Shown here: positions 1 through 64,000 of the stretch, piece by piece
Layout: each line of letters starts with the position of its first letter
Numbering within the stretch: position 1 is the first letter of the stretch
From: Tribonema minus
Taxonomy: Eukaryota > Sar > Xanthophyceae > Tribonematales > Tribonemataceae
Length of the DNA: 64,000 nt
NCBI GenBank assembly: GCA_017506865.1
Contig: JAFCMP010000153.1
Location: 1-64,000 of the forward strand
Direction of reading: 5' to 3'
Made by a program: the position numbers and the translations under genes
The notes under the pieces: model-generated
Told to the model about the DNA's origin: nothing
Seen by the model: only the letters and a program-made list of their open reading frames with translations
Database searches by the model: none

Positions 1-29
1 GCACAAATCACATTGTTACCAAAGTGCAA

Positions 30-305
30 CTTCAAATGCGCACCTTGCCAAGGTCGCTGGCCGTCTGCATGATGCCCGCTTCCAGCACGTAGTCCTCTCT
101 ACATCCCCCAAATATATACAGTTCGTGTATGTACCCAGATGTATGCTCAACAATACAATAAACCAGCATATAATAAAACCAGCAAGCATACATGCATACC
201 TTGACGAGGTCGCTGGCCGTCTGCATGATCCCCGCGTCCCAGCAGGTAGTCCGGCGGGCACGCAATGCGCACGCTCACGCCCAGCTCCGCCGCGCCAAGC
301 AGCCC
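30..305 (-). repeat. Two echo copies of the 3' edge of the OTC exon 654-394
   Basis: Reading the minus strand, about 305-203 and 100-44 repeat the end of the OTC exon ([15 protein letters not shown], then K and a donor). The exon itself ends at 394. The first copy has Val for Gly before the final Lys and an insertion after the Leu; the second reads [15 protein letters not shown]. Each copy keeps a GT after the AAG codon. They lie downstream of the real exon, inside the next intron. Confidence 0.85.
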
Positions 306-393
306 CTTGTCTACTAATGCACGACACTACACATGTTTGTATATGTATGCACAACAATACAAAACTACGGCAATAAACAGAATGCACACATAC

Positions 394-2003
394 CTTGCCG
401 AGGTCGCTGGCCGTCTGCATGATGCCCGCGTCCGGCAGGTAGTCCGGCGGGCACGCAATGCGCACGTTGACCCCCAGCTTCGCCGCGCCGAGCAGCAGGT
501 CGTGCAGCACGTTGTTGCCGTCGCCCACCCACGCGACGGTGCGCCCCGCGAGCTCCGCGCCGAACTGCTCCTGCAAGGTCATGATGTCGGCGAGGGTCTG
601 CAGCGGGTGGTGCAGGTTGCTGAGCGCGTTGATGACGGGGACGCCGGCCTCCGCCTAGGGTAAATAGGTAGGTAGGTAGGTAGAGGTTAGGGCTAGGGGT
701 AGACAAGGTCAGGGTTAGAGGTTAGGGCTAGGGTCATGATGTCGGCGAGCGTCTGCAGCGGATGGTGCAGGTCGCTGAGCGCGTTGATGACGGGGACGCC
801 GGCCTCTGCCTAACGGTAGGTATTGGGACAGCGGGTAGGTAGGTAGGGGAGGCGTTAGGGCTAGGATTTCATGTTGATCACGGGGATGCCTGCCTCCGCC
901 TGGGGTAGGTTGGTGTGGGCCACAGCGGATTTGGTAGTTAGGCAGGCAAAGGTTAGGGCTAGGGTTGAGCGTTGATCACAGGGACGCCGGCCTTCACCTG
1001 ATGTAGGTAGGTAGGTATGGGACATAGCAGATGGGTAGGTAGCTAGGGGAGGGAGTTAGGGATTGAGATGCAACAGGTCGCTGAGCTCATTGGTCACGGG
1101 GATGCAGCCTCTGCCTGGAGCACACCTGGGGGTAGGGGGGTAGACGTGGGGCAGCAGGTGGGTCGGTAGGAGAGGGGTCAGGGGGCCAGGGTTCAAGGTG
1201 CATGCAGGGTGCTGGGCCTCCAACGAGGTGGTGCACCTGCAGCGTCGCAGTGCGCGAACGCGTGCGCGAGCAAGATGCTTAAGTTTCACAGAAAAAAAAG
1301 TGAACTGCAGTAAATTCATTTGAGAATTCATTCACACAAATTAATTCATTCACCAGCACTCGCCCGGAGCGTGGCGACGTCGCGGTGCGCGAAGACGCGC
1401 GCGAGCACGATGCTGTTGACCTCCCCAGCCTGCGCGCCGTGTCCTTCAGGCTTTCGTTCAAACCCAATCGTATTGAGCTTGCTGAAGCCATGTGTGAACT
1501 CATTCGCACACATGAATTCATTCACGAGCACTCGCCGGAGAGTGGCGACGTCGCGGTGCGCAAAGTCGCGCGCGAGCACGATGCTGTTGAAGCGCCCCAG
1601 CACGCGCGCCGTGTCCTTTAAGCTCTCGTTCACACAAGTGAATTCAATCAGTTCGTTAATGAATTAGTTCATGAGCACACTTGCCTGAAGCGTGACGACG
1701 TCGCGGTGCGCGAACACGCGCGCGAGCACGATGCTGTTGAAGCGCCCCAGCACGCGCGCCGTGTCCTTCAAACTCTCGTTCACGCCCAACTGAATGTCCG
1801 AGGGACCCAGGAACAGCGCCTGGCCGCCGAGCATGCCCATTCCCGTCTCCGTGCTGACGCGCGTGCGCGTGGAGCGTTTCTGGAAGATCATGGCGACGGA
1901 TTTGCCGAGCAGCGGGAGCTCGCGCTCAATGCCGGAGGCGCCGCCCTTGAAGGCGGTCTTGAGCGCGATGGAGCAGGCGAGGACGTCCAGCAGCTCCTGC
2001 TTG
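394..2003 (-). CDS. OTC: Ornithine carbamoyltransferase, two internal exons (partial gene)
   Basis: Makes citrulline from ornithine and carbamoyl phosphate in arginine synthesis. Two exons are clear: 2003-1685 (about 106 codons) and 654-394 (87 codons). They join in phase 0. The first carries the carbamoyl-phosphate motif as KRSTRTR, followed by [13 protein letters not shown] and [10 protein letters not shown]. The second carries the HHPLQTLAD motif (HPxQ) and [11 protein letters not shown], which open the ornithine-binding half. The sequence resembles the OTC of animals and fungi. The exon ending at 1685 uses a GC donor (CAG then GCAAGT). The catalytic C-terminal exons lie left of the window. 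I could not find the N-terminal exons upstream of 2003. Both introns are full of degraded copies of the exon ends (listed separately). Family assignment is firm; gene extent is not. Confidence 0.9.
735..1115 (-). repeat. Four echo copies of the 5' edge of the OTC exon 654-394
   Basis: The minus strand repeats the exon start ([19 protein letters not shown]) at about 811-735, 905-862, 1000-960 and 1116-1070. The copy nearest the exon keeps [11 protein letters not shown] almost unchanged; the farther ones keep only about 10-14 codons. Between copies lie GGTAG and GTTAGGG-like microsatellite tracts (660-720, 820-870, 905-1060). Confidence 0.85.
1205..1640 (-). repeat. Three echo copies of the 3' edge of the OTC exon 2003-1685
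   Basis: The coding text around [16 protein letters not shown] recurs on the minus strand at about 1640-1530, 1460-1350 and 1290-1205, weakening with distance from the exon. The copied unit includes intron sequence: each junction is followed by a GCGAGT- or GCAAGT-like donor and an AATTCATTC-rich stretch. This shows that exon end and intron start were copied together. Confidence 0.85.
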
Positions 2004-2059
2004 CTGCGGGGGGGGGTGAATTCATGAATACATGGATTAATGCATGAATGAAAAATGAA

Positions 2060-2325
2060 ATTGACATGATGAGGTTGGAGCAGGCGAGGGCGCCCAGCAG
2101 CTTCTGCTTGCTGCGTGGGGGGGTGGATTCATGGACACACGGGTGAATGAATGAATGAATGAATGAATGAAAGATGACAGCCGCCGCCCTTGAAGGCAGT
2201 CTTGAGCGCGATGGAGCGGGTGTGCACGTCCAGCAGCTCTGGGAGGGGGTGGATTCATCGGCACATGGATAAATCAATGAATGAATGAAATGACGTCCAA
2301 CAGCTCCTGCTTGCTGCAGGGTCAT
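2060..2325 (-). repeat. Three echo copies of the 5' edge of the OTC exon 2003-1685
   Basis: The exon start ([11 protein letters not shown], with its CAG acceptor) is repeated on the minus strand near 2117-2070, 2245-2160 and 2325-2290. The middle copy extends into the ALKTAFKGG region. GAATGAAT microsatellites (2140-2170, 2270-2290) separate the copies. Confidence 0.8.
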
Positions 2326-2329
2326 ACAC

Positions 2330-4880: not shown

Positions 4881-4889
4881 AAAACACCC

Positions 4890-4897: not shown

Positions 4898-4933
4898 GGA
4901 GCTCTCGCTGCGTGCTGCACCAGGAGCGACGTG

Positions 4934-7900
4934 ATGAGCAAATGGATCAATTACGCCACCAACTTGCTGGACAGCGTCGACAGCATTGCAAAAGAGAGTC
5001 TGATTCATCCAGGTGTGCACATCATGTCATGTGTCTTTCTCAACTGTTGACAAATGCCGAATTGATGTAGTTGCCGGATCATCTGCTCTCTAGGGCTTGC
5101 TGATGCTGTACAGGGTATCTTTGATGCTGTTTGTGCTCAGGAATCCCGCGCAGGCCATTGATGAATGATCATCAGAAATCAGCAAGAAATGAAACTTCAA
5201 ACGCAGTGTGCAGCGGCTGAAGGATCATGTTATCGAATTCGCTGCAGATGCAGTGGACTCTGCTGCAGAGCGCCGCAGGAGCAGACGCAGGGAGAGCGCG
5301 CAGCAGCCCAATGGCGGCGGTGATCACGATGCCAGCTCGCATGACCCAGCAGCGCAGCAGCAGCAGCAGCAGCACAGGCAGCAGCAGCAGCAACAGCAGG
5401 AGCAGCACTTCAGCTCTCGCCATCAGGACTCTCCCTCAACAACAGCAAGGGCGTTCACCGACCAGGCCATCGCGGAGGAGCCCGAACAGGCGCATCACGA
5501 CTACTCTCCGCGCCCCCTCAACGTCCCCCCTCACCGCCCCGACGAGCTGGAAGAGTTAGGGGGGGTCCCCCCTGTCTCCCCTGCAGCACCCGAGCCTTAC
5601 ACCTGGGCCCCAGACACGGCCGCTGCATTTTCAGCCGCCGCTCTAGGCACCACCGCTGGCGCGCACAGGCCCCATCACAATGCCATGGCCAGAACGCCCC
5701 CCAGCAACCCCCCTCCGATAGAGTACCCCAGCCCCCCGAATTCCGCCGCGCGGTACTCACCAGCCTTGCAGCCGCAGCAGCAGCAGCACCACCAGCAGCA
5801 CTACCAGCAGCAGCCGCAACGGCAGCAGCAATCGCCGGGTCACCTCGAGCAGCGGCCCGCAGCCTTCAGCAGCAGCGCGACAGACAGCCCGCGCGGCGCC
5901 GCGCCCGCTGCACCCAGCGCAGCAGCAGCAGCTGCGCAGCACGTCTCCGTGCAGCCCCCCCCCCTCCCCCGGCCCCCCGCCGCAGCTGCCCCCCCTGTCA
6001 GCGGCCCCAGGGGCGGCGACCGACCGCCGCACAGCGGTACGGCACCTGCAGCGTTTGGAGGCGATGGGCCACCACAAAGCGGGCCGAGAGATGCGGCGGC
6101 AGTGCAACCGCCGGCCAGCGGAAGCAGGGGCGGCGGTCTGGGGTTCGGGCTGCTCAAAAAGGTGGCCGGCGGGAAGGCGGCGGGGGGTGGGGACAACGCG
6201 GAGGAGAGGAAGCTGCGGCAGGAGGTGGAGGAGCTGAGCCTGGAGCTCGAGGTGAGATGTTGAGGTTGAGGTTGAGCGCTGCGGCAGTGGTGACGTGCCT
6301 GATGAAGTATCATTTTACAGCAGTCTGGCGTGCGTGAGTGTGTGCGTGTCACATGGGGAGCTGGGCGATACAGCGACGGTGCTGATATGTTGGCACGCGC
6401 TGCTGCATAGTACTTGATAGAAACAGTCGCTTTACGCCGTCACATGTCAACGTTGGTATGGATAGCGCCATGCTGCGCACTGCTGTTGTAATAGAGGTGG
6501 ACCAGAGGTGCACTGCAGGCAGCACATGGGCCGCACAAAGGGCGCACCTCGTGATCAGCTGATGCAGTTCCTGTTGTCACTCTGGTGCGTCAAGTCCACG
6601 CACTTTGCTTGCGCTGGGCTGCTGCTGCTGCCGTTGATGTCAAACCAGACAGAGGAGCTTGCTGATTGCAGCAATGTACTGGTGCATCAGTGCACGCCCG
6701 TCGGCATGTGCGGCTGTTGATTGTAGGGATGTTGTGAGGGAGCCCATTGTCACTGCATACCTTCAAGCTGTTGAAGCCCCCCGGCCTGCAGCGCTCGTGC
6801 TGTCTGTCTGGTTAAGCACTGGTTTGCTGCACGCCTGCACGTTCCCCACATCTGTTTGTGGTGGTGTAGGACACGGCAAGCCATCAGCATATGAAGCCTA
6901 CAGCTTCAATCAGCATTTTAAGCCCAAAACCTCGACGTCACCACTGTCAACTTCAATGTCAACTTCAACATCTTGACTGTTGCGTCATAGGTAGTGGAAG
7001 AGAAGCTGCGCCACCAGGAGCAGGAGCTGCGCAAGGCAGCCATCAGTTGTGCGCGAATAGTCAACTTCAACAACTCAACACGTCTGCATTTGAACTTCAA
7101 CAATGTTGGTCACCGATATCGCCTGTGCTGCGCAACAGGAGCTGGAAGAGCGGCTGCGCCACCAGGAGGAGGAGCTACGCGAAGCCGCGGAGAAGCTTGT
7201 GAGGGAGAGGGAAAAGGCGGCGGAGGTGGCACGCGAGCGCGCGCAGGAGGAGCAGCAGTTCATGGCCGCCATGGGTGCCAAGGTAGGTGTCATGTGCTAC
7301 ACGTGACACTTACACTTTCAGAAACTCAGGAGGAGAGGCAGTTCGTTCGTGGCCACCGTATTAAGCACTGCTCTCTTGGGGTATTTTGCACTTCAAAACG
7401 CTAAACGCGCATTATGCGTGTGAGTGTGACTGTGTGGGTTGGGGGGGGAGGGGGGGGTGAAGGTCTTGAGCGGTGAACATGAAGAGGACAGGACCTAATT
7501 AAGAGGCCGTGAACATGGCATTACTGTGTGTGGGTGCAGTGTGCCAGAAGGTCCTCCGCATGCGGCGGATGGGACAGCGCGCTGGCGGCGGCAGCAGCGG
7601 TGAGATGCGCGGATTGGAGGAAGCGGCAACGCTCCACGCTAGGTCAGGTGCTGCTGCCGCGGCAGCACGCGCAGCAACGCTAAGCAACACACCTACATGC
7701 ATGCACGCCCCGCTGCACGGTGCGCTCGATCGCTTGCATGCACGCAAGCGTGCCCATCTAACAGCCCCGAACACCGCCAACAACAGGACGAGGCGCTGGC
7801 CACGGAAGCAGCGGCGGCCGCAGCGGCGCGCGCGGCGGCGGCAGAGGCGGCGCAGCGCGCGGACGCCGCCGCGGCGGCAGAAGCAGCAGCGCTCCGCGCC

Positions 7901-10900
7901 GCAGCGGCGGCGGCGACGGGCGCGGACGAGGGGCGGCGCGAGGGGCTGGCCGCGGCGGCGGCAGCGCTCAGTCAGCTGAGCATTGTGGAGGAGAGGGCGG
8001 CGGAGGCGCGCGAGGCGGCGGCGCGCGCGGCGCGGGCTGCGCGGCAGCGGCAGGAGCAGCTCGAGGTGCGCGCGCAGTGTCTGTTGTGGGAGGTCTGCGG
8101 AGCTGTAAGCGTGCTGCTTTGAGCCTGTTGGTGATCTGGTAGAGGAAGGGAGGGGGCGGACGGTGGGGAGCGCGGTGCGGTCGGCGCGGCAGCGGCAGGA
8201 GCAGCTCGAGGTGCGCGCGCCGTTTCACGGGCGGTCTGCAGAGGCGTAGGCGTGCTGCTGTCAGCCTGTCCGTGACACGCTGGAGGAAGGCACGGTCTCT
8301 GGGGGGGTCCGCACACAGCTGTAGACGTGTTGTTGGGAGTGATATGGTAGAGGAAGGGGAGAGGGGGGGGGGAGAGTGCGGGGGGGGTGCAGGGCGCAGG
8401 GGCACCTGCAGCTGGTCTCTGCGCGTTTGAAGTTGGCAGCAGCGCTGCGTTCACGGAGAGAAGGGTTAGAGGCAGCAACGCTCACAGTTTGCACAACGCT
8501 CTTAAATTGCACAAGTACAGACAAAACATGTTCGTACGTGTTAGGCACATGATAATACGGCAGCGTACAGCCGCCGACCCTTGCCCCCATTATATATAAT
8601 ATATATAGCCCTCAACCAAACCAATGTCCTAACTCACCTCAGTCCTCTAGTCTGCAACAACGAAAAATCTTGCTGGTGTGCTCACCATGCAATTTCGGTT
8701 CTGCCATCAATTGGACTTTTTGTTGAATTGTCACGCGTGTACATAGCTGTTGGAATATGATGCATACATGAGCATCTGCGCTCTTAGTGTTGGACTATCA
8801 TACATTCCTGAGCAACTTTGCTCTTAGATGTTTCTGCCCTATTCTGGCAAGTTCTAGGAAGGCATGCCCCTGCCCCTGGGGATTTTTTTTCGCCGATACG
8901 GTCTGTACATCCTGCGAATGATCACTTTTCTACTTCCGCAAGCCGCCTCCAGCGCCTCTGCTTCCTCTGCTGCTATGCATGGGTAATGGTGTGCCCTGCC
9001 AGCGAGCTTCTCAAGTAGCTTTTCAATGAACAGTAATCACATTCTGGATGATCACAAAGTACTTGTGTGAGTCGATGCGACCGTCTGTTGCACTATGTAC
9101 AAGAACCAATCGCCTGCGCATCTCTGCTGACTGTTGCTTGCCAGATGGAGAACGCGCAGATGGGGCAGCAGCTGGCGGACATGCAGCGCGAGCTCGATGA
9201 GATGCGCGCGGACCTGCAGCAGCGCTCAGCGGTTCGAGGTACGCGCTGGCTGAGCGTTGTCACGCGCTGCACGCGCAAGCGGAATGTGTGATACGACTGG
9301 CTGTGAGCGTCATCGCACTGAAAGCAGTGCGTCTGCCATGGCGACGGAGAAGAACTCGTGGAGTTTGTGACAAGCTGATGAGAGCTGTGTTGAGCCATGA
9401 AAACCGTGTATACATACATATGTACCCAGATTTTACTTCGTCATCAAAACTGCCCTGCTCCCCCCCCCCCCTCCCCCCCCCCCCTGTGTCATTCGCCTGT
9501 TGCTCACGATTGCGCGTCCAGTCATCGCCTCCACCAGGTCGTCGACATGTTGATGATGCTCAACCAGACACCACGCACGCACGTCACGTCACCGCGCCGC
9601 AATACAGGGCCCCGCCAGGCGCAGACACACCCGATACCTTGTGCCATGTCCGCGCTGCGCCGAGTCATCACATCAGACGTGCGTTTCAACGTTCCAACCA
9701 TACCAATGATGGCAATCAAACACTTGGTCGATGTGATTCAATCATGCACACGCCCATGTATCAAGCAATGATCAAGCTTATTCAGCCGTGCGCATGCCAA
9801 TGTATCACACCATGATCAACGGAAACGAATCAGAAGATTGTAGAGCTGTAGGTGACAGGTGTGCTTAGCCGCAAGCGCCTTCCACCAATGACCGTGGTCG
9901 CTGCTGCTGCGGCAACCGGCCACGAGTCAATATGTGTCACTCAGCCGTGCGCATGCCAATGCGCCGCGGAACAGGGCCCGCCACCGCGGAGGCGCTCGCG
10001 GCGAGCGCGCGCATTCAGGAGCTGGCGACAGCGGCGGATGTGCAGCGTTCGGCGGCGCGCGCGGCGCAGCAGGAGGCGGGCGCGCTGCGGCGCGAGCTCG
10101 CGGCGGCACGCGCGGCGGCGGCGGAGGACCGCGCTGCGCTGGAGGCGCGCGCGAGCGCTGCCACCGCACATGCAGGTATGCATGTATGTATGCATGTATG
10201 TGGGGACTGCAGAGGGTGCCCTGGTTGGAGGTGTGTGCGCAAGCGTTGCCGCCGCACATGCAGGTATACATTCGTGTACACGAATTATCCACATGCTTTC
10301 AATTATGTAGATGGCGTGGGGCATCGCAAGAGTGTACCTCAGCTGGAGGCGCGCACGGATGAGCGCTGCCACATCACATGCAGGTATGCATGCACGTGGG
10401 TTCCCGCAACAACAAACCTGGAGGGCTGGCAATGCGCTGCCTGTACGCATTGCTGCAGAGGACCTCATGTTTCCCCTTTCCAAAATGCATTGATATGCAG
10501 AGTCGCTGGCGCAGGAGCTGGAGACGGCGCGGCGCAGCCCGCTGCTGGCACGCGTCCCCTCAGGGGGGAGCGTGCAGGGGGACGGCGGGGGGGGCGGGGG
10601 GGGCGAGGCGGCAGTGGCGGATGCCAGGATGCGCGCGCTTACTGAGCAGCTGCTGCGCAAGCAGAAGGTGGCAGACGAGCTCGCGTGCGAGAGGTGGGCA
10701 CCTTGAGTGATTGTATGTCGGTGTATGTACATGTGAGACGCGTATAGGTATAGAACTATGAATGTACAAGTTTACATGTACATCCATACTTACAAGGCAT
10801 TGATGTGTGCATGGAAGGTGGCGGGTGAGCTCGAGGGCGCGAGAGGTGAGCTGCTTTGCATGCGCTGTTAGGATATGAGGTATGGATGGTACTTTTTATT

Positions 10901-14619: not shown

Positions 14620-14965
14620 AGTCGTGTACAGGGGCTAAATGCCTTGTGTGGACTGACCTAGTTTCATCTCAGACTCGGACGCTGACCGCTCTGTATTTAG
14701 GACTCGTTGAGTTCGATGAGAGACCAAGAAGTGTAGGTCAGTCCACACAAGGCATGTAACCCTTGTATACATCTCTAGTCGTACTCAAACAGGCCAGAAT
14801 CTTCTGTGGACTGACCTACACTTCGTAGTCTCTCATCTTACTCAAACGGTCTAAATACACAGCGGTCAGCGTCCGAGTCTACGGAGCAACTAGATCAGTC
14901 CACACAAGGCATTTAGCCCCTGTACACAACTCTATAGTGCTATAGTCGTACTCAAACAGGCCAGA
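14615..14965. repeat. Centre of the Smr inverted repeat, with nested tail copies
   Basis: The tail of the left arm (GTACGACTAGAGTCGTGTAC...) appears again inverted at about 14735-14800 and again at about 14880-14965. A block containing CGGACGCTGACCGC and AGTGTAGGTCAGTCCACA is present in both orientations. The centre is thus a nest of at least three tail copies. Confidence 0.75.
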
Positions 14966-19430: not shown

Positions 19431-19435
19431 CGCGT

Positions 19436-51139: not shown

Positions 51140-54015
51140 ATGACATTGGATTGGCAGACTCAGGGTTCTCAACACCAGCGGGAGCCGGTGGCCTGGGTCA
51201 ATGCTGACGGCACGTCTTTCACGGAGCCTGCCGCGTTCGATGCAGCAGCGCAGGCAGAGGCACTAAACCGAATCCGAAGACGAGAGCACGCCATCGTCCT
51301 CAGTGCCGCCTTCTCCCCCGACGGCGCCTATCTGGTGGCCGCCAACGACGCTGGACGCGTCGCCATCTGGGAGCTGGCCCCGTACATGAGGGGCACCAGC
51401 TGGCTGCCGCACAGCACCAGCGACGACGATGACGGCGAGGGCGATGACGCCAACAACCAGTCGCTAGACATGACCCCGGACCTGTCGTTCCAGACGGGCG
51501 GCGGCGCCATCAACTGCCTGCGCTTCGTGACGGCGCTCGACGGCAACTGCCTGCTGCTGTGCGGCGCGGACACGGGCGCGCTGGCGTGGCACTGGCGCGT
51601 CCTGCTGGAGTGCGTGGAGACGGGGGAGTGCCCGCCGGAGGCGCACGTGACGCTGCGCGCGCCGCAGACCGCGGGGCACAGGGGCGCGAAGTTGCCGCTG
51701 CCTGAGGTATGTATATGTAAGCTTAGGTGTGTATGTGTAACGAGCTATGTGCTTGCCGGAGGCGCACATGATGCAGACCGCGGGGCACAGGGGCGCAAAG
51801 CTGCCGCTGCCTGAGGTATGTATACACAAGTTTATAAGTTTATTGTTTGTACATGTAACGAATTCTGTGCTTGCCGGAGGCGCACGTGACGCTGCGTGCG
51901 CCGCAGTCCGCAGCAGCAATTTGGCCGAACTATGGTAAGCGAGGGTCTGCTGCTGCGCATTCAGCATCACCCAGCGCACAGCTTGCGCGATGCTTGAGGG
52001 GAAGCTCTGTGACACATAGGTAGGTGTATGACCGCAACATATATACCTACCTTGTACGGGGCGCAAAGCTGCCGCTGCCTGAGGTATGTATGCTTGGTTT
52101 CACGTTGTGCATGTGTAGCAAATTCTGTGCTCGCCGGGGGCGCATGTGACGCTGCGCACGCCACAATTGACGCGCTACAGAGGGGCGGGCTACAGGGGGG
52201 CGAAGCTGCCTCTGCCTGAGGCATCTGAGGTATGTGGGTATAGAAAGCTAGAGATTCGGTGGATTGTGTGTCCGTCAAAGGTGCACGTGACCCTGCACGC
52301 GCCGCATCCGCGGGCAACGCTGCCGCTGCCTCAGGTGTGATGATCAGGCGTGTGCAACGCAAATTTCGTGGGAAGTGCACTTAACGCTGCTGAAGCTGTG
52401 GTCCGCGGGCGCGGCGAAGCTGTCCCCCGACCCCTGCAACCCACCGCCTGCCCCCCTCCCCCGGCTCAAACTTCAAACCGCACCCACCAACCCCCCCCCC
52501 ACGCGCCCAGGTCAACGCCCTCGCGGTCACGTACTGTGGGACGGAGGGCGTCGTCGGCGCGTGCGGCGACGCGCGCGCGTACAAGTGGGACCTGCGCACG
52601 GGCGGCGTCGTGCGCCCGTACGCGGGGCACGCCGCCTACCTGCTGAGCGCCGCCACCGCGCCCGCCGCGCAGCAGCTGCTCGTCACCGGCGCGAGCGACG
52701 GCGTCGTAGGCGTCTGGGACGAGCGCGCGCGCCCCGAGGTCGCGTTCCTGCACCCGCTGAGCGATGCCGCAGGCAGCAGCAGCAGTGCTCAACAGGGGGG
52801 AGGGGGTCTGCCGGCGGGCACGGCAGGGTGGGTCTCCGGGGTGCAGCTGGGGCCGGGGGGCAGCGGCTGGCTGGCGTGCGCGGGGGGTTACGGGGAAGGG
52901 GGGGGGGGCACGGCGGCGGGGGGGTTTCTGGCGATGTTTCATTTGCCGACGCAGAAGCTGACAAGCGCCCGCGCGCTGGCGGCGCCCGTGAACGCGATGG
53001 ACCTGTGCGACGACAGGTGAGCAGCGCTCCGCACAGGTGTACTTGGCGACTTGCGCGCAAGCAAACGCTGTCGGATTTGAGCTGGACGCTGCAGGTGGAA
53101 AAGGAGGTCCAGCAGGCATGCCGCAGCTAGTGTGGGTGAGGACCAGTTGCTGATGCCATCATCTGATGCCGCAGCGACAACGCGACAGTGCGCACGCGCG
53201 TACGTCTGGTGCATCTGTGGGCGCGATTGCACGCGGGGGAGCTGAGTGCGTTGGAGTTCATGGCAGGTTCGCATAGAGGAGCAGGGTGGCGTGCTTGGTA
53301 TGTGATCAGTGGGCGCCCGTGTTTTGGTGATGCCCCTGTGTGATGACAGGTCTCCGCGGCGTTAGTTCGCTTGTGAACCTGACCGCGCGACAGCATGCGG
53401 GGGTGTCCAAGTGCACTGCCATTCATTGGGACTGCCGTGAAGTTGAATATGTTGTGCGTGATGCGGCAGGCGTCGGTGGGTCGCCATGGTTTGTCAGCTC
53501 TCAGCTCATGTTTCCAGCACACGTGACCAGAAAGCGCCATGTAGATGCTAGGGGAAATTTTGCGGTGTGAACATGATGTCCATCCTAGGATTGAGGAACT
53601 TAGCTTGTAGTGTCACAAACCATCCACATTCTGCTTCACCGCCCCCTGCGCTGCTCTTTGCCACATGGAGACCCAGCAGCGAATGCACTTCAGGCACTAC
53701 GGAAAAGAAGATGCCTCATCCAATGGCTCTCATACTTCTATGGTTTGAAACTCTTGAAGTTGACTCTCCGCACCCCGTGCTGCTGCGCGCTGCCGCAGCA
53801 TCATCACCGTGGGCGACGAAGCGCGCGTCTCGCGCTGGGGCTGGTGCCACCTGGGCCACGAGAGCAGCACGCGCGTAACCGCCAAATCGGGTTTTGCGCT
53901 CGCAGTCAACAGGAGCGGGCCCTACGCCGGCGTGGTGGCAGCGGGGGGGCGGTCACCGGAAGTTGCCATCTGCATCGTGCCGGGGAGCGTCGCGTTCTCG
54001 CTGGCGTTCTACTGA
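51140..54015 (+). CDS. THOC6: THO complex subunit 6-like WD40 protein
   Basis: THOC6 is a beta-propeller subunit of THO/TREX, which couples transcription to mRNA export from the nucleus. Exons 51140-51706, 52511-53016 and 53799-54015 join in phase to 429 aa with GT-AG borders. WD-like blades: VLSAAFSPDGAYLVAANDAG with RVAIWEL, VVGACGDARAYKWDLRTGGV, LLVTGASDGVVGVWDERA, IITVGDEARVSRWGW. The order and the C-terminal ending (VAFSLAFY) follow human THOC6 closely, with extra acidic and Gly-rich loops. Intron 1 holds five echoes of the exon 1 end. It shares its promoter region with the desaturase. The assignment rests on recalled family pattern rather than a search. Confidence 0.82.
51740..52345 (+). 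repeat. Five echoes of THOC6 exon 1, 3' edge
   Basis: The exon end (PPEAHVTLRAPQTAGHRGAK, then LPLPE and GTATGT) recurs at about 51748-51822, 51872-51910, 52058-52090, 52130-52235 and 52278-52340. Most copies keep the AAGCTGCCGCTGCCTGAG end with GTATGTAT. Intron text (TGTGTATGTGTAACGA-like) is repeated between them. Confidence 0.92.
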
Positions 54016-54856: not shown

Positions 54857-57800
54857 ATGAGTGGAGGCAGCGGCGCGCTAACATCATGGTTCCATGGGTG
54901 TAGCGCTGGCACGGATGTGTTCTCAGCGGCAGTACTGCTGCAGGGCAGCTTGGTGGCGGGAGGGTATACCAGTGGCGACTGCACAACTGGAGGTGCGCTA
55001 TCAAGATTAGGATTAGGATTGCTTTGTCAACGTCGCTATTTCATTTGCATAGTTTGAACTCCTAGCGCCTCTCCGCGCGCAGAGAGGCAGCTCAATACTC
55101 CACTCCTGGCGGCTTCTACAGGCTTGGTGTAGCGATCGTGTCCGGCGCTGTAAGTACACCCTGGTGTGTGACCCGTTGCGAGGTCTGGCCATACTCTCAA
55201 GCCAGGAACGCCACTGCTCACTGATCTGTGATCTAGTATGAACAAGCAGCAGGCGCCGACGCGCTTCATGTTCCAAGCTGGCTGCACCTGCAGGCTGTGT
55301 TGGTTGAAGACACTTGACAACTCCTTGTTGAACGCTGCTTTCTCAATCGATTCATGTGTGGGGCTCCTTTGGGGCTTCAGCCTTATACAATCGATGTCAC
55401 CTGCTGAATGACGCCTCAATCATGCATCTCAAAGAAGCAGCACAAGTTTTCACGAGGTACGTAGGTACAAGTGACCCCCACCCGTGCCACGGCGTATTCC
55501 AGAGTTGTTCTTAATATGGTCCTGTGGTACTCTGACGCTACATCACAGCTAGTACTTGGGGCACATTTATCGACTGGATCACAGCGAATTTTTTAAGGCG
55601 TCAATGATTTTCTCTTCACAAGCAGGGCCAGCTTTCCACAGAGTCTGGATGTCCCATGCTGTCGGACTACCTCCTGGGTGTGCAAGCTGCTCATCAGTTC
55701 ATCAGCTCCTACACACCTATCCACCTGCACACGGCACCTGCGCCTTGGTCACTCAGCTCACATTCACTTCAAGTGCTGCAGTTGAAGTTTGAGGGCCGCT
55801 GCGACCCTATGAGCGCTGTCAAGAGTCGGGGTGCCCTGCTGCGCGATGCTGGTATTGCGTTTGAAGGAAGTATTGTCCGGATACACGGGAGAGACCCTCG
55901 GCGTTGACACCAATGGCACTTTCCCTGATGCTAAGAGGTGGCAGCTGCACTACGTGTACTGCAGAGGCCCCATCAATTCTGGTGGCGGAAGACTTTCGAG
56001 GAATTGGTGTACATAGGTGTACCCACTCCAAGAGCTGTGATTCACTGTGGCCATCAAACAGCGTGAAATCACCCCTTGAGTGGACTACGCCCCTTTCGTG
56101 ACCAGTACTCAGGATTGGTGCACCCAGGGCCTAGAGCTGGTGGCATAGGACCTGGTGGCATTGGGCCCCCCAATTCTCGGTCTACCTGCGTATCCGGTCG
56201 TGTTGCACGCTGCTTGATAGCCACAGTGAATCCACAGCTCTCAGAGTGGGTACACCTACACCGGTTCCTCGCGTGTCTTCTGCCCGCAGAATCGATGGGG
56301 CATCCGCAGTATGTACAGTTTTGACTGGTGGATACGGTGGTACTGTTTGACTCGTGGCCAATTGCTGCAGCAGCGGCGACCGCGGTTATTGGTGGAAGGC
56401 ACTTGCGGCTAACCATCCCTTGTCACCTAGAGCTCTACGACCTTTTGATTCGTTTTCATGTACACATAGTGCAGCTGCCACCTCTCAGCGTGGGGGGAAC
56501 TGCCATCGGCGGTTCACGCCGAGGATCTCTCCCGTTTATCCGGACAACACCTTCAACGCAACACCAGCATCATGGCGCAGGGCAAGGGTCAGGGCTAAGG
56601 CTAGGGCGCAAACGTGAGCTCGCTTGCCGCTGTGCATGCGGCCCCTCGGGCTCGTCCGCAGCTGCAGCACTCGTCGGGGTCGTTGCGCCGCTGCGGCGCT
56701 GTCAGCGCGTGCGGCACTGCGACACGCGCGCAGCCGGTCGCCGTCCGTTGAGCGTCGACACCGCACGGCAACAGATTCGCCACCAGGTGGCAAATCTGCG
56801 GCGCACGGTGGACGTGCCACTTGCTCATCATCTGCACAGGCAGCACCTGCGTGCCGTCACTGCGCGTGGCGACACTCCAGCCGCCACTGCGCGTGTGACC
56901 GCCGCATCGTGACTGCCGCAGCTTCGCGCCGCCCCTCGTCACGTGCACACCTGTTGCGCAGTGACGCGCCAGTTGCTTCAGCGTGTAACTGTCGTGTCGT
57001 GGTCGCCCGCCGCCGCCTCTCGCGTACGCCCACTCCAGTCAGTGGCTGCGCCTCGTGAAACGGTTCGTCAGGCATGGCACTGCACAAGAGCCCTGAGCGC
57101 TGCTGCCGTGGGTCAGCGCACACCCTGAGTAGTGGTGACGCACTGCCTCTCGCTCATGAATATGGTGCGCGGTGCCTCAGCTTGCTGCGCTCATGAGCCG
57201 TGCGCACGCGCTCGGCGCCAGAAATTGGGGCCAGAGTGGGGCTGGGTTGGGGTTCGGGAAAGGCGTACGCCGAAGCGTGTGGCACGTTTAGGGTAGCAGA
57301 GCAGAGCTACTCCGCCGCACGAGCTGCTTGCGCGTGTTGTTCGCTCGGGTTGAGGCCAGGGGTCAGGTCAAGTCATTGAAGAAGACAGCAGTGCGCTGCG
57401 GGTTGTGGCATGCCAAACCCAAACCCAAACACCAATCTAGCCCTGGTTGTGTCTTTCTGTAGTACTTCATGTCTTCACTTCAACTCTGCAGTTGCCGCCG
57501 GTCACAGGCCAGCACAGTGCGCCAGGATGCTGTTCCTGTATCGCGTGCCACGCATGGCCACCAGCTTTGTGTACCTACTGCATCTCACTCACGGGCTGAT
57601 GTCTGGCACTCTAACTCATACTTCAACTATGTACTTATACTCTATCATTCGCAGTGCTGCCGCGCACGCCCGGCACGGAGCGCCAGGACGCCATCCTCTA
57701 CCGCATCCCGCTCTCCGCTGACTGCCCCTTCTTGACCCGACTGCCCCTCCTTCGCCCGTCTTCAACTCTGACTTCAACTTTGTACTTCAACTCTATGTAC

Positions 57801-60800
57801 GTCGCAGTGCCGCTGCGCGCGGCTGGCACGGAGCGCCAGGACGCCATCCTCTACCGTGTCCCGCTCTTCGCCGACTGCCCCTTCTGCCCCCTACTCAACT
57901 TTGACTTCATCTCTGCACTCCAACTCTATGTACATCGCAGTGCTGCTGCGCACGCCCGGCACGGAGCGCTTGGATGCCATTTTCTACCGCACTCTCCTCA
58001 CCACTGACTGCCCCTCCTTAGCCCGTCTGAGCCCTCTCAACTTCATTATGTACCTCATCTCTGTACTTCAACTCCATGTACTTCGCAGTGCCGCCGCGCG
58101 CGGGCGGCACGGAGCGCCAGAACGCCATCCTCTACCGTGTCCCGCTGAGCGCTGACGGCACGCTTTATGACTCTGACTTCAACTCTGTACTTCAACTCTA
58201 TCATGTGCAGTGCTGCCGCGCACGCCCGGCACGGAACGCCAGGGCGCCATCCTCTACCGCGTCCCGCTCACTGCAGACGCACTTCCTTACCTTCAACTTC
58301 AACTCTGCACCTCACCTCTATCCTTTTGCAGTGCTGCCGCGCACGCCCGGCACGGAGCGCCAGGGCGCCATCCTGTACTGCGTCCCGCTGGCCGCCGATG
58401 GCACGCCCTCTAATTACATCTTCAATTATGTACTTCAACTCTATCATGCGCACTGCCGCGCACGCCCGGCACGGAGCGCCAGGACACCATCATCTACCGC
58501 GTCCCGCTCACCTCCTTCTCGACTGCCCCTTCTCAACTCTGACTTCAACTCTGTACTTCGGCACGGAGCGCCAGGACGCCATCATCTACCGCGTCCCGCT
58601 CACCTCCTTCTCGACTGCCCCTTCTCAACTCTGACTTCAACTCTGTACTTCAACTCTATCATGCGCAGTGCTGCCACGCACGCCCGGCACGGAGCGCCAG
58701 GACGCCATCCTCTACCGCGTCCCGCTCGCCGCCGACGGCACGCCCGACAAGACCCAGGCGCAGCTCATTCAGATCACCGCCACGGGCAGCTCGGCCATCA
58801 CGGCGATCGCGCCGATCGCGGGGACGACCGACGTCGTGGTCTGCGGAACGGTCTCGGGAGGGTTCCGGGGCGGTTACGCGCCGACAGCGCCGGCTGCTGC
58901 CGCCGGGTTCGGCGGCAGCGACATGTTCGCGATGCGCTTCGACGCGGCGCTGCAGAAAGTGTGGTCGTGGCAGGTATGTATGTATTGTTTGTCGCTTCTG
59001 TCAGTATACAGGGTATGTAGGTCCTTCCGAAGTAGTAGGTTCACACGTGTTTGCGATGCGCTTCGGCGCGACGCTGCAGAAAGTGTGGTCGTGGCAGGTA
59101 TGTGATGTATCGTCGCTTCAGTACACAGGATCCTTTGTGGAGTAGTAGGTTCATGTTCTGCGATTTGATATAGTTACCCTTAGTACCCAACACCCCTAGT
59201 ACCTAGTACCCAATGGGTGCATTTTGATATAGCTACCCCTAGTACCCAATGGGTAGTACCATTAGGTACTAGGGGTAGTACCATTGGGTACTAGGGGTAA
59301 CTGTATCACGATTGTCATGGACGCGGATATGCAGATGTTGTCGACGTGGCAGGACTGGGTACATTGTGTCTGGAGGATACGGGGCATGCAGTTGCATCGG
59401 CAGGTATGTTGTTCTTGATCACGTGGGCTCTATAGCCAAGCCGGCCATGTTTGCTCGTGGACGCAGACGTAGAATCTGTGTATAAGTTGCTCTCGGTATA
59501 AATGTGCAGAGTTTATGTTCGCCTGACTAGGGTCATGCTTAGCGAGCATGTGGGGTGTGTAGGCACAAGCATTGGGGGTAGGTACACCATACTACGGTAG
59601 GCTCGTGGTCTCGATGCTACGGTAGGTTCGTGGCCGCGATGCGCATGGAGGCCCGGGCGAACAGCTACTGTGGTTCTGGCAGGCCGGCTGAATCATTCCG
59701 TGCTCTCGCCGCTTCGCGCAGCTCGGCTCCGCGTCGGACGAGTCCTGTGCGGGCGCCGCCACCAAAGACCGTGTTGCACATGCAGACAGTGAAACGCGAA
59801 TATATGGCGGAGCCAACACACGTCCATGTCCATGCTTCATCGGGAAATCGATCATTTGCCCGCCGCTGCACGCACCTCCGCTCTGCAGCGGACGAGTCCT
59901 GTGCGGGCGTCGCCACGAATGACTTTTTTGTACACGCCGCGACCCCTGAAACGCAAGTACCTCACGGAGCCAACACCTCCATTTCCACGGCCTCCACAAT
60001 TCATCGGGATGACTTCGCTGAATTCATGTCATGTGCCGCTTCGCGCAGCTCGGCTCCGCGGCGGACGAGTCCTGCGCGGGCGTCGCCACCAATGACTTCG
60101 GTTACGGCAGTCAGTGAAATGCGTATACCTACCTCGCTGAGCCAGCACCTCCATTCTCGCGATTTTTCACGATTTGAACAATCCATTCCGTGTGCTCGCT
60201 CGCCGTTCTTTGCGCAGCTCGGCTCGGCAGCGGACGAGTCCTGCGCGGGCGTCGCCACCAACGACTTTGCCGGCGCCGTCGTCGTGGGCGCCACGGGCGG
60301 CGCCCTCCTGCAGCCCCTCATCGGCCCCGTCGACATGGTCATGGTCAGCCTCAACATTGACAACGGCAACCAGCTCACCGCGCTGCAGGATAATCCGGAT
60401 CCGACTGGCGCGCGCAGCAGCCTGCCCGTGGCCGTCGCGGCGCGCCTGAGTGCTGATGTGGTCGTCGTGGGCAAGTCAGGTGAACTTTAATGTTGAAGTG
60501 ATTGATTAACACGTGCATGCAGGTTTTTTCCTAGGGGTGCCGGTGCGCGCAGCAGCCTGCCCGTTGCGGTCACGGCGCGGCTCAGCGCGGGCGTCGTCGT
60601 CGTCGTAGGTGAACTTCAATTTTGAAGTTCTTGAATGTTGGAGTTGGTGTTGTAGTCTGCGGGGTTTTCTGGGGCTATGGCCGGTGGCAAGTCAGGTATG
60701 GAGCCGTCTCAACCTCGGTGTGCTCAGCACCTCAACCGAATTCATGCTTCCGCACTTCACCTCGTTGACAGAGATCGCATCGCTCACCCCGGCACCATCC

Positions 60801-63800
60801 ATGGTTGCACTTCAACTTTAACTTCAGAGATAGGAGCGCTGTCGCCCTCGGTGGCGACCTCCATGAGCGACGTCGGCAACTCGCGCGACGTGTACGTGAG
60901 GCTGTACTCCTTCTCGCTCAACGTTGACGTTTCATTGCATTTCAACTTGAACTTCACACGTGAGGCTGTGCTCATTCTCGCCATTGATTGCACTTCAACT
61001 TGAACTTCACAGAGATCGGAGCGCTGTCACCGTCGGTGGCGACCTCCATGACCGACGCCGGCAACTCGCGCGACGTGTACGTGAGGCTGTACTCGTTCTC
61101 GCCGAACCCTCTGGAGGCGCCCGTGCTGGGGTGGACCGCGCCGGTCAGGTGCGTCACCGCTGTCAGAACTTCACATTTGAAGTTTGCACGCGCAGGAACC
61201 ACGTCAACTGCAATGCTGAGATTGAAGTGTGCGCGACGTGTATGTGAGGCTGTACTCGTTTTCGCCGAACCTGCTGGAGGCGCACGCGCTCGGGTGGACC
61301 GCGCCGGTCAGGTGCGTCACTGCTGTCAGAACTTCACATTTGAAGTTTGCTCGCACAGGAACCGTGTTGAGTGCAAGTGGTTGAAGTTTATGGCGCGCCG
61401 TCGCAGACCTCCGTGGATGGGCACCTCTGCGATGGTGGGACGCGTCAGTGGCTGAGGTGTCGTCGGCGCCGCTCATGTATTGAGGCCAATACACAGACAG
61501 CACTACTCAGATCGCCGATGACCAGGGTATATCATGCACTTTAATACTGAGCCTTCCTCCACCTGTGAGCTTCCCACTGAGCACTGCTGTTCGCATCGTG
61601 CGCGCAGCATCGACGCCGCGGACCCGGCGGCGTTCGCTGTCGACCTGGAATCCTTCTTTGAAGTTTACTTCAAATCCTCAAAACTTCGACTCCATGTTGG
61701 ACTTCCTACTGAGCTCTGCTGTCTCTCATGTGCAGCACGGACGCCGCGGACGACCCCGCGGTGCTCGCTGTCGACCAGGGATTTTACGACCTTTTGAACT
61801 TTTTTTGCAAACCTCAACTTCATGCATGTGGACTTCTTGCCTGAGCACTGCTGTGTTGTCAAATAATGCGCAGTACCGACGCCGCCGACGACCCTGCGGC
61901 GCTCGCCGTCGACCAGGACACGGGGCGCATTTACATAACGGGCAGCACGCGCGGCACATTCGACGGCAAGACCAAGCGCACCGCGGACTCCATCGACGCC
62001 TTCATCGCGGAGCTCGACGGATACTCGGGCACCCTGGACTGCGTGCGCCAGGTGCGCCTTGTTGGCAACGGTTCTGTACATTCTGAATGTAAACTTAATT
62101 CCTTCTTGTTGTGATGCTTGTTGTTATAAATAACTATTGGTTGGTTGCGGAGGTTGACGGGTACTCGGGGCACCCTGGACTGCGTGCGCCAGGTGCAGTA
62201 CATACCTACCCTGTTCGTACACACCTGCCCTGTTGGTGACATGCGTATAGTGATTGGTAAACTCACTGGCTTCTTGATGTGGCGTTGCGGTTATGGTGGT
62301 TGATTGCGAAGCTCGACGGATGCTCCGGCACCTGAATTGCGTGCGCCAGGTGCAGCTACATACCTACCCGTCGGTGGCATATGCACTATTTTATTTCATG
62401 TTCTAAGTTTGGTGAACTCAGTTGCCTTGTTGTTCTGGCGTCGCCGTTGTGGTGGTTAGCTGCGGGGCTCGACAAGTGCTCCACACCTTACACTGCGTGT
62501 GGCAGGTGCAGTACATACCTACCTACCCTGTTGGTGACATGTTCATGTTTTGAATCAAGTCGACACTTGCATTTGAGTAGTCGCTACTCTTGCTGCAGTG
62601 CCCCCCTCAAGTCAAGGTGTCAACTTTTTGCTGACGACATTGTGTCCGTCATGCGCTGTTGAAACGTACAAACTGGTAGTTGGAAACCAGTGTAGATTCA
62701 AAAATAGTGCTCAGCAAATATTAAAAAAATCCAAAAAAGGTGATCATCATTTATACCATGTTGTGTTTACTGCTCAAGCTTTGTCAAAAAAAATTTGGTA
62801 GTAATACCCATCTTAATCGACAACATCTTGAAGTGGTAATCAATGATTATTCGCTCTTGTGCCCTCAGGTCAAGGGGTCGGATCTTGATGATGACATGGT
62901 GGCCATTGCGCTGGACGCAGATAACGTTGTCATTGGTGGCGGCACCAAGGGCTCCATACCGCCATTCGGAAACCAGGTACGGGGCTTTGTTCATTTCCAT
63001 TTTTTTCCTAGAGTCCTTCGTTTTCCCCATCATTTTCGAGTCATTTTGTGTAGAATTGTTACCCTCAGAGCATCTGAGATATCGTATGTACCCTAGGTAT
63101 CAGCCGGCAGGAACAATTGCTCAGTCATGACTTAGACCCACGGGCGATTGAGCCAGGGCATTCATAGCGACGCACCACAGGTTACAGTACAGCCCATTTC
63201 GAGATTACTGTACCAGATTTGTTCGCCGGTTTGATATTTTGTAACAACGGCCTGTACAACAAGCGCAAACGTGCTCAATCCTGTGAAGGTCAGGTCTGCA
63301 GAGCTGTGGTGGTAGCGGTGGGCACGAGAGCTTTGACATCGCCAGCAGCACCAAGGGCTCAAACCAGCGGCGTCTGCGGCAACACGTCATCACATGTGTG
63401 GACCGTCATATCATGATACGAAGGCACGTCTACTGCATGCATACGCATGTGTGACTTGCGCTGAACGGCACGCATACACGCAATTAAGAGGTAGGACGCC
63501 AGCCTCTTGTCCGTCAACCGCACCAACGGCGGCTGCGGCAAGCAACCAACCACCGCAACCGCACTTATATTTACAACACAATCACACACTTACTATAATT
63601 CTATGATGATGGCTTTGCATTGTCTCTCATGTATGCTCGCCGCATCAATTGCAATGCTACAGGGCAAGTGGGACGCCATCCTCATGTCCTTCACACGCGC
63701 CAGCGGCGGCTGCGGCGACTACCCCGGCCGCACCTATACTCACGACGCCATCACACACAGCCTGCACTATGATCACGACTTTCATTGGTCTCTCATGTAT

Positions 63801-64000
63801 GCTCGACAAAAGTTTCAATGTATGCGCAAACGTTCAACGCACGTGCACCACTGCAGGGCAAGTGGGACGCCATCCTCATGTCGTTTGACCGCACCAGCGG
63901 CGGCTGCGGCGACTACCCCGACCGCGCACATATAATGATTGTTTTCTTTCATGAAGCATACATCTTTCATCTTTCAATCGCGCCATGCTACAGGGCAAGT
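54857..64000 (+). CDS. SBBP-like beta-propeller protein (partial, runs off the right end)
   Basis: Exons with matching phases: 54857-54992, 58669-58973, 60218-60479, 61013-61148, 61874-62051, 62869-62976, and probably one opening near 63995. The chain repeats a propeller-blade pattern: DVFSAAVLLQGSLVAGGYTS; DVVVCGTVSGGF; SDMFAMRFDAALQKVWSWQ followed by LGSAADESCAGVATNDFAGA; DAFIAELDGYSGTLDCVRQ; DDDMVAIALDADNVVIGGG. This fits SBBP-type repeats, usually seen in surface or secreted proteins, but I see no signal peptide. The ATG at 54857 is the first after an in-frame stop; earlier exons are possible. Almost every exon here is flanked by echoes. Confidence 0.75.
55870..56550. repeat. Imperfect inverted repeat inside the propeller gene's first intron
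   Basis: 55870-55965 (GTCCGGATACACGGGAGAGA ... GTGGCAGCTGCACTA) matches 56548-56455 in reverse. 56017-56065 (GTGTACCCACTCCAAGAGCT ... CATCAAACAGCGTG) matches 56260-56205 in reverse. The arms are 70-85% identical by eye around a centre near 56135. The minus strand of the right arm reads a Cys-rich stretch (CTYCG; RCRCTHSESCGF) that may be a decayed zinc-finger protein. Confidence 0.8.
56341..56415 (-). repeat. Dispersed repeat shared with 9868-9940
   Basis: Reverse complement contains TTAGCCGCAAGTGCCTTCCA, an ACCGCGGTCGC-like block and GGCCACGAGTCAA. The same order occurs at 9868-9940 inside a golgin intron. It marks a repeat family, and the copy here is part of the inverted repeat. Confidence 0.75.
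57655..58620 (+). repeat. Eight echoes of propeller exon 2, 5' edge
   Basis: The start of the exon at 58669 (LPRTPGTERQDAILYRVPLA) is repeated eight times upstream, near 57655, 57812, 57938, 58085, 58208, 58330, 58450 and 58556. Most copies carry a GCAG acceptor preceded by CTTCAACTCTATC- or CTTCAACTCCATG-like intron sequence. Identity rises toward the true exon. Spacing is roughly 100-155 bases. Confidence 0.95.
59045..59102 (+). repeat. Echo of propeller exon 2, 3' edge
   Basis: Repeats MRFDAALQKVWSWQ as MRFGATLQKVWSWQ, followed by GTATGT as in the real exon ending at 58973. Confidence 0.9.
59166..59309. mobile_element. Small hairpin (MITE-like) element
   Basis: TGATATAGTTACCC at the left and GGGTAACTGTATCA at the right are near-perfect reverse complements. 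The interior (CTAGTACCCAATGGGTAGTACC and similar, in pieces) also folds back on itself. About 144 bases, no coding sequence. Confidence 0.75.
59695..60100 (+). repeat. Three echoes of propeller exon 3, 5' edge
   Basis: The start of the exon at 60218 (LGSAADESCAGVATNDF) is repeated near 59705-59770, 59868-59930 and 60033-60098. The copies keep GCGCAGCTCGGCTC or a close variant, so two of the three retain the acceptor. Confidence 0.92.
60535..60610 (+). repeat. Echo of propeller exon 3, 3' edge
   Basis: Repeats GARSSLPVAVAARLSADVVV as GARSSLPVAVTARLSAGVVV, then a GTGAAC donor like that of the true exon at 60479. Confidence 0.9.
60825..61312 (+). repeat. Echoes on both sides of propeller exon 4
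   Basis: Upstream, 60826-60925 repeats the exon 4 start (IGALSPSVATSMSDVGNSRD) with an AG before it. Downstream, 61225-61312 repeats its end (YVRLYSFSPNPLEA region, then GCGCCGGTCAG and GTGCGTCAC). Confidence 0.92.
61600..61790 (+). repeat. Two echoes of propeller exon 5, 5' edge
   Basis: The exon start (STDAADDPAALAVDQD at 61874) is repeated at about 61603-61650 and 61730-61785, each preceded by GCAG. Confidence 0.9.
62145..62512 (+). repeat. Three echoes of propeller exon 5, 3' edge
   Basis: The exon end (ELDGYSGTLDCVRQ) recurs at about 62150-62192, 62310-62352 and 62465-62508, decaying with distance. GTGCAG...ACATACCTACC follows each one, so intron sequence was copied too. Confidence 0.88.
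62595..62645 (+). repeat. Echo of propeller exon 6, 5' edge
   Basis: CCCTCAAGTCAAGGTGTC and the following GACGACATTGTGTCC mirror the true start at 62869 (CCCTCAG, GTCAAGGGGTC, GATGACATGGTGGCC). Confidence 0.7.
63290..63368 (+). repeat. Weak echo of propeller exon 6, 3' edge
   Basis: Contains GTGGTGGTAGCGGTGGGCAC and AGCACCAAGGGCTC, resembling the GGGTKGS part of exon 6. Confidence 0.5.
63485..64000 (+). repeat. Echoes of the next propeller exon, reaching the window end
   Basis: Copies reading GKWDAILMSFTRASGGCGDYP occur near 63485-63545 (weak), 63660-63735 and 63853-63925. A further CTACAG and GGCAAGT begins at about 63989. Each strong copy has a CAG acceptor. The real exon is probably the last, beyond position 64000. 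Confidence 0.85.

What the first reader, a model, noticed from the sequence alone, without database searches (positions are those of the whole stretch)
1..64000. Exon-edge echoes: introns built from tandem copies of exon-intron junctions
In the OTC, golgin, glutaredoxin, CrtI, THOC6 and beta-propeller genes, the last or first 30-100 bases of many exons plus the adjoining intron recur as ordered, decaying copies inside the neighbouring intron. Copies of 5' edges are always upstream, copies of 3' edges always downstream, and the copy nearest the exon is usually the best. Well over 30 copies can be counted. Seen directly: the copies and their order. Inference: repeated local tandem duplication at splice junctions is how introns grow here, with selection keeping only the innermost junction. 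Intron creation by tandem duplication and introner elements are known, but a systematic process of this kind is not one I know of.
Basis: partly seen in the sequence, partly recalled or inferred. Interest (0 to 1): 0.92.

Follow-up and report, generated by a model that had tools for sequence, protein, structure and literature searches.

The report
Introns swollen by tandem junction copies
In this alga, short stretches of DNA of about 80 to 190 letters are often duplicated side by side, and where the stretch covers the border of an exon and an intron the intron grows and keeps a fading echo of the exon edge, which shows in the open how introns can lengthen.

Summary
The echoes are real. In five window genes, 21 of 42 exon edges have copies in the adjoining intron (49 hits, a few double-counted or weak; control maximum 32 in 1296 comparisons, cut-off 31.5). 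Glutaredoxin has 2 more copies; the CrtI region has none. It is genome-wide: 27 sequences (324 kb) hold 274 local direct repeat pairs against 11 inverted, none in one shuffled set, and 20 of 120 automatically called introns elsewhere carry edge copies (control 0 of 1200). Copies were found only locally. Best reading: frequent tandem duplication of 80-190 bp units in exons, introns and unannotated DNA, filtered by selection. Exonic units are mostly multiples of three (9 of 11), edge and intron units not (19 of 63). Edge units survive because the innermost junction can still be spliced, and stay recognisable because one copy is constrained. Targeting of junctions is not required outside the window, but the junction lies non-randomly near 0.4 of the unit, which suggests a splice-signal filter. 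One such event is published (potato RdRp); serial intron growth this way, over many genes, appears new in scale.

The parts
1685..2003 (-). OTC exon (carbamoyl-phosphate-binding part); 5' edge copied upstream at 2076-2110, 2179-2239, 2292-2313; 3' edge with a GC donor copied downstream at 1539-1633, 1368-1460, 1243-1279
394..654 (-). OTC exon (into the Asp/Orn-binding domain); 5' edge copied at 732-809, 873-899, 969-993, 1074-1114; 3' edge copied at 200-300, 44-95
655..1684 (-). OTC intron of 1030 bp, 83% covered by local direct repeats: three copies of the upstream exon's end, then four of the downstream exon's start
6995..7282 (+). golgin exon 7139-7282 with copy of its 5' edge at 6995-7035
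7765..8210 (+). golgin exon 7765-8065 with copy of its 3' edge and donor at 8149-8210
9975..10383 (+). golgin exon 9975-10175 with two copies of its 3' edge and donor (10218-10263, 10342-10383)
11504..12335 (+). golgin exon about 11967-12168; 5' edge copies at 11504-11548 and 11788-11857; 3' edge copy at 12244-12335
20150..20510 (-). glutaredoxin exon start (acceptor at about 20196) with two upstream copies of acceptor plus exon start (about 20358 and 20503)
51628..52334 (+). WD40 (THOC6-like) exon 51140-51706: 3' edge and donor, with five copies downstream
57655..59097 (+). 'beta-propeller' exon 58669-58973 with eight upstream copies of its 5' edge (57655 to 58607) and one copy of its 3' edge at 59045-59097
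59724..60603 (+). 'beta-propeller' exon about 60218-60474: three 5' edge copies (59724, 59880, 60051) and one 3' edge copy (60542-60603)
60828..61311 (+). 'beta-propeller' exon 61013-61148: 5' edge copy at 60828-60917 and 3' edge copy at 61231-61311
61611..62349 (+). 'beta-propeller' exon 61874-62051: 5' edge copies at 61611 and 61737; 3' edge copies at 62147 and 62300
63491..63925 (+). 'beta-propeller' exon start at 63857 with upstream copies at 63491-63556 and 63663-63731

Best explanation
This algal genome undergoes frequent tandem duplication of units of roughly 80-190 bp at many places. Inside reading frames mainly in-frame duplications persist. Inside introns and in unannotated DNA they drift and fade. 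Across an exon-intron border they persist when the junction next to the intact exon keeps a full splice signal, because splicing from the innermost donor or to the innermost acceptor leaves the mRNA unchanged. The displaced copy, an exon edge plus a splice site plus an intron flank, becomes intron and decays, and the intron has grown by one unit. Repeated rounds give the ordered echoes. Shown: the copies, the tandem nature of most, their local origin, the excess of direct over inverted repeats over the sampled sequences taken together, the unit sizes, the frame pattern, and the frameshifts in copies. Inferred: use of the innermost sites in splicing (no RNA data), neutrality of the copies, and the mutational cause, which I guess is repair of staggered breaks by fill-in and end joining, because the few young near-complete repeats overlap by only 0-3 bp at their joins.
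For: Direct to inverted local repeats 274:11, one shuffled set 0:0, 9.6% of 324 kb covered. Smallest unit offset median 135 bp, 80 of 96 arrays at most 190 bp. Edge copies at 21 of 42 curated window edges and in 20 of 120 automatically called introns elsewhere, controls 0 of 1200. The intron side is also homologous in 45 of 61 copies. Copies are local as far as the search sees: the 326-aa beta-propeller query hits only 5 exons of its own gene and 6 edge copies in 158 Mb; window 1-3000 and L010 5000-8500 hit themselves plus 3 and 1 weak short matches. Donor and acceptor edges are about equally affected, 28 and 33 copies. Copies drift: 30 of 34 indels shift the frame; differences by codon position 9.8, 6.6, 13.7%. 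Frame pattern: 9 of 11 exonic arrays are multiples of three against 12 of 42 edge and 7 of 21 intron-only arrays (Fisher p=0.002). Intron-only and exonic duplications exist (21 and 11 arrays; L035).
Against: The frame pattern is partly built into annotation, since a frameshifting duplication in an exon would not be called exonic. The junction lies at a non-uniform place in the unit (KS p=8e-7). In 16 of 61 copies no intron-side likeness above control was seen. Intron flanks have decayed more than a simple one-branch against two-branch model suggests (ungapped identity about 35-45% on average beyond 9 nt on the intron side). Annotated gene spans carry 74 arrays per 145 kb against 22 per 169 kb elsewhere, so the process may be linked to genes. 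The overlap of 0-3 bp rests on five young pairs chosen to fit within 12 bp; one other pair at similar identity has -2 and the 13 less alike pairs range from -12 to +11. No Ku domain was found, which weakens the end-joining guess, although short exons could hide it.
Confidence: 0.72

Rival explanations
1. Junction-targeted duplication: something at exon-intron borders (chromatin, transcription, splicing-linked breaks) makes duplications start there, so introns grow mainly at their ends.
For: Junction near 0.4 of the unit, exon-heavy units (>0.6) only 3 of 35. Arrays denser in annotated gene spans.
Against: Elsewhere 20 of 44 genic non-exonic arrays are intron-only, and 11 exonic and 14 unannotated arrays exist; the edge excess there is explained by an assumed two-fold detection advantage (p=0.28). 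Donor and acceptor sides are about equally affected. The position bias can come from selection for units that carry a full splice signal: all 17 acceptor units carry at least 54 bp of intron (computed from the table).
Confidence: 0.17
2. Intron creation by duplication of exonic AGGT segments (Rogers model): the introns themselves are duplicated exon.
For: Donor-edge copies often read AG|GT, so a copy could serve as both acceptor and donor.
Against: The copies carry intron flank as well as exon edge in 45 of 61 cases, and the introns concerned are longer than the unit; a pure exonic duplication would give introns exactly one unit long, made only of exon.
Confidence: 0.04
3. Introner-like or transposon-derived repeats inside introns.
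For: Introners are known from algae and other aquatic lineages (PMC9860276, passages read); a young dispersed 800-bp repeat exists in this genome.
Against: The three queries tested match only their own place, plus four weak short matches elsewhere, in 158 Mb; edges do not match introns of other genes beyond the control level.
Confidence: 0.02
4. The copies are functional: alternative or poison exons, or recursive splice sites used in stepwise removal.
For: In most junction-reaching copies the splice motif remains (donor +1 and +2 identical in 24 and 22 of 28, acceptor -2 and -1 in 29 and 28 of 33).
Against: This is about the conservation of the exon side, as expected if only the copy drifts; indels shift the frame in 30 of 34 cases. 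No RNA evidence is available.
Confidence: 0.05

Closest known systems
Tandem duplication across an intron-exon border in the potato RdRp gene (Ma, Lan, Niu 2016, PMC4974935; passages read)
   Same: One tandem duplication covers the end of an intron and the start of the next exon; splice signals are inherited from the parent border; the displaced exon piece becomes intron.
   Different: A single recent event, described as gain of a new intron. Here dozens of copies per 64 kb, both edges, serial copies, mainly growth of introns.
Small tandem duplications from staggered breaks (Schimmel et al. 2021, PMC8355091; passages read)
   Same: Short head-to-tail duplications; its text calls them the most common short insertions in the human genome and ties them to break repair by end joining.
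   Different: Described as short (<100 bp); here the median unit is 135 bp with a fall above 190 bp; the cause is not tested here.
Dual-specific AGGT splice sites and introns in tandem repeats (Duan et al. 2024, PMC10809524; passages read)
   Same: Tandem repeats with repeated AG|GT borders, with an evolutionary link to introns.
   Different: There the repeat is coding and the intron is a multiple of the unit; here the repeats are non-coding edge copies.
Introners (Gozashti et al. 2022, PMC9860276; passages read)
   Same: Intron evolution, in algae among others, driven by repeated DNA.
   Different: Introners are dispersed families; the copies tested here are local.

Membership tests
Short tandem duplication | Head-to-tail direct repeats, adjacent, same strand | tested here: met
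   274 direct against 11 inverted; 45 of 61 copies match on both sides of the junction
Short tandem duplication | Little homology at the join (end joining rather than recombination) | tested here: inconclusive
   19 near-complete pairs, chosen to fit within 12 bp: five young ones overlap 0-3 bp, one similar pair -2, the other 13 from -12 to +11
Intron gain by tandem duplication (Rogers/Hellsten) | New intron exactly one unit long, derived from exon only | tested here: not met
   Most units include intron flank and the introns are longer than one unit
Intron gain by tandem duplication (border-crossing, potato type) | Duplicate crosses the intron-exon border and the displaced exon piece becomes intron | tested here: met
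   on predicted exons; splicing itself not observed
Introner | Dispersed family of similar introns in many genes | tested here: not met
   three queries tested:
Recursive or alternative exon | Use of the copied sites in RNA | not testable with these tools
   no RNA reads

The most novel reading that the evidence does not exclude
Introns in this lineage are lengthened as a steady, genome-wide process by duplications of about 80-190 bp across their own borders, and only units carrying a complete splice signal survive (junction near 0.4 of the unit; 17 of 17 acceptor units with at least 54 bp of intron), so each intron holds a readable record of past duplications at its borders and of which splice signals were sufficient. 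A bolder form: border chromatin or transcription makes junctions true hot spots of duplication.
Probability: 0.35. Interest if true: 0.8.

Novelty: new variant of a known kind. Interest (0 to 1): 0.6.

Why it matters
Longer introns are usually put down to transposons (general knowledge). Here the steps are visible in one genome, at many introns and at graded divergence, from a process that needs no mobile element. It would let one date intron growth, measure which duplicated splice signals selection tolerates, and ask how the spliceosome ignores good-looking decoy sites next to the real ones. It also warns annotators: a gene finder trained here called many echoes as exons.

Tried and rejected
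Considered and rejected: introners or transposons (copies local in the three queries tested; the tool warns that a missing match does not prove rarity); assembly artefact (copies differ by about 10% in the exon part and by indels, though reads could not be inspected); exonic AGGT intron creation; one fixed period such as a nucleosome repeat (the unit spread of 80-190 bp is broad). Led nowhere: a search for an allele of L015 was swamped by a young repeat and did not list even its own place; 18S and DNA polymerase A searches did not complete; the species was not identified. The organism is a photosynthetic alga whose one tested light-harvesting protein is closest to fucoxanthin chlorophyll proteins in PDB (that the best ones are from diatoms is recalled). 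Tribonema minus was a guess from memory; a 23-nt T. minus primer taken from PMC7139823 had no exact match. No other eukaryote genome was available for comparison. A paralogue test of intron length failed because no paralogue of the beta-propeller gene was found. Weaknesses: gene models elsewhere come from a small home-made gene finder trained on the same sequence, which first put OTC on the wrong strand; exon copies called as exons were removed by rule, and exons under 30 bp and introns under 35 or over 4000 bp were dropped. L020 (73% GC) was left out from the gene finder on, but is included. L018 lies on the window's own contig, 6 kb beyond the window. In the first version of the frame count one array (L012 2515) stood in two classes, 10 of 12; I now give 9 of 11. 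The copies were limited to those ending within 8 bp (window) or 3 bp (elsewhere) of the edge.
Full report
WHAT WAS CHECKED. The window is the start of contig C153 of an unnamed 158-Mb, 554-contig assembly. Light-harvesting genes are abundant (92 exon-level matches), and the one tested is closest to fucoxanthin chlorophyll proteins in PDB, so I take it to be an ochrophyte-type alga; the species was not established.

THE COPIES ARE REAL. Self-BLAST of the window gave 73 direct and 5 inverted repeat pairs, 70 of the direct and 4 of the inverted with starts less than 3 kb apart. Read by eye, the OTC gene shows the last part of one exon with its GC donor repeated downstream, and the first part of the next exon with its AG repeated upstream. 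A search of up to 100 bp of each exon edge against the neighbouring intron, in five genes with hand-adjusted exons, found copies at 21 of 42 edges, 49 hits; the cut-off was 31.5 and the maximum of 1296 comparisons with introns of other genes was 32. Caveats: one place is counted for two edges, two hits lie far from the edge, one hit equals the control maximum, and outer edges have unknown neighbours. Glutaredoxin adds two copies. CrtI shows none, and the TLDc gene none.

THE PATTERN IS GENOME-WIDE. In 27 sequences (window plus 26 stretches of 10 kb from other places, one of them on the window's contig) there are 274 local direct pairs, 11 inverted, none of either in one dinucleotide-shuffled set; 9.6% of bases are covered. 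Density varies: L030 has none, L027 34%. They form 96 arrays (L020 left out); the smallest unit is 135 bp at the median, 80 of 96 are at most 190 bp, and few lie above. With a gene finder trained on these sequences, 20 of 120 introns outside the window carry edge copies, 28 copies in all, against 0 of 1200 control comparisons. Five light-harvesting gene loci, picked as suspects from 92 matches, showed no edge copies; one of them (L035) has two intron-only tandem repeats (its printout was cut in L036). So it is widespread, not universal.

THEY ARE LOCAL TANDEM DUPLICATIONS. The beta-propeller protein finds in the whole genome only five of its own exons and six edge copies; two DNA queries found themselves plus 3 and 1 weak short matches. 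Of 61 copies that reach the junction (42 window, 19 elsewhere; 28 donor, 33 acceptor), 45 are also alike on the intron side above the 95th percentile of 28 unrelated comparisons, 16 are not. Exon parts are 89.5% identical (3110 of 3476 bases).

COPIES DRIFT, THE REAL EDGE DOES NOT. In 47 copies of 12 window exons, 30 of 34 indels shift the frame, and differences by codon position are 9.8, 6.6 and 13.7%. This is what one expects if the copy is free at all positions and the exon mainly at silent ones. The intron side decays faster than the exon side, with a sharp step just past the splice motif. The motif itself stays about as alike as the exon, which a drifting copy facing a constrained original would give. 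The intron flank has decayed somewhat more than doubling of rate alone suggests; I leave that open. The copies were found by their exon side, which also favours well-kept exon parts.

IS IT AIMED AT JUNCTIONS? Arrays in annotated genes: 42 at edges, 21 intron-only, 11 exonic; 22 unannotated. Random placement would put 33% of the first two classes at edges. The excess is strong overall (p=3e-8), but outside the window (24 of 44, p=0.002) it disappears if edge units remain detectable twice as long (p=0.28), which constraint on one copy could give; the factor two is assumed. The exonic class follows the reading frame (9 of 11 unit lengths divisible by three), the others do not (19 of 63; p=0.002). 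This points to a general process with selection as filter, though annotation partly enforces it. One result speaks for a junction effect: among 35 nearest copies with unit 60-260 bp the junction lies at 0.41 of the unit on average, and exon-heavy units are rare (3 of 35 above 0.6; KS against a uniform spread above 0.18, p=8e-7). From that table all 17 acceptor units carry at least 54 bp of intron, enough for a branch site and pyrimidine tract (general knowledge), so a filter on splice signals explains acceptors well and donors less well.

ORDER. Among 13 edges with more than one copy the nearest is best by identity in 8, tied in 1, not best in 4, about 5 being expected at random. A trend, not a rule.

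HOW IT MOST LIKELY WORKS. A unit of about 80-190 bp is duplicated head to tail. Five young near-complete units overlap by 0-3 bp at the join, one similar pair by -2, and 13 less alike pairs by -12 to +11, all chosen to fit within 12 bp. This agrees with break repair by fill-in and end joining, a mechanism known for small tandem duplications (PMC8355091, passages read), but does not prove it. The Ku domain was not found in the genome, which does not exclude it because short exons hide domains, but leaves other end joining open. If the unit crosses a border, the innermost junction keeps the mRNA intact, and the intron becomes one unit longer.

KNOWN OR NEW. A border-crossing tandem duplication in potato RdRp is the same single step (PMC4974935, passages read). 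Ten searches of the open library were made. bore on this question; the titles and abstract starts they listed (16 of 16, 6 of 6, 20 of 36, 15 of 994, 15 of 63 and 15 of 32 papers) named no study of serial growth of introns by this route. The lists were capped and subscription papers are mostly missing. I call it a new variant of a known kind, new in scale and in the visible series of ages.

Noticed in passing
window 40004-42153 and 43843-45894: Two inverted pairs of about 0.9-1 kb at 81% and 78% identity, with open frames in the arms; none of the frames scanned in and beside them had a Pfam match. A third similar head-to-head pair of frames may lie at 14046-15607 (by eye).
   Followed up: partly
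L015:1211-2011: A repeat of about 800 bp listed at 39 places of the genome at 98-99% identity (capped): probably a young mobile element.
   Followed up: no
L020 (C35:400001-410000): A 73% GC stretch with long open frames, three of them scanned without a Pfam match, on a contig that elsewhere carries the young repeat (C35:862723): possible foreign or viral-like island, or a mis-join.
   Followed up: partly
window 25004-26281 and 30472-31557: Two paralogous frames with a BTB_2-like and a TLDc domain each, about 5 kb apart; no edge copies in the first.
   Followed up: no
sampled loci: The gene finder uses GC donors for about 14% of introns, unusually many if true; OTC has one whose copies keep GC.
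   Followed up: no
C144, C223, C278, C90/C179, C1/C79: Identical or near-identical gene hits on pairs or trios of contigs suggest that both haplotypes are partly assembled, which would allow a test for polymorphic duplications.
   Followed up: no
window 16022-16641: A 180-bp repeat pair at 96% identity, 440 bp apart, with no match reported in the spacer: not a simple tandem duplication.
   Followed up: no
whole genome: No Ku domain match was found, and only two short RuBisCO large-subunit matches, each with a stop, perhaps nuclear plastid relics.
   Followed up: no
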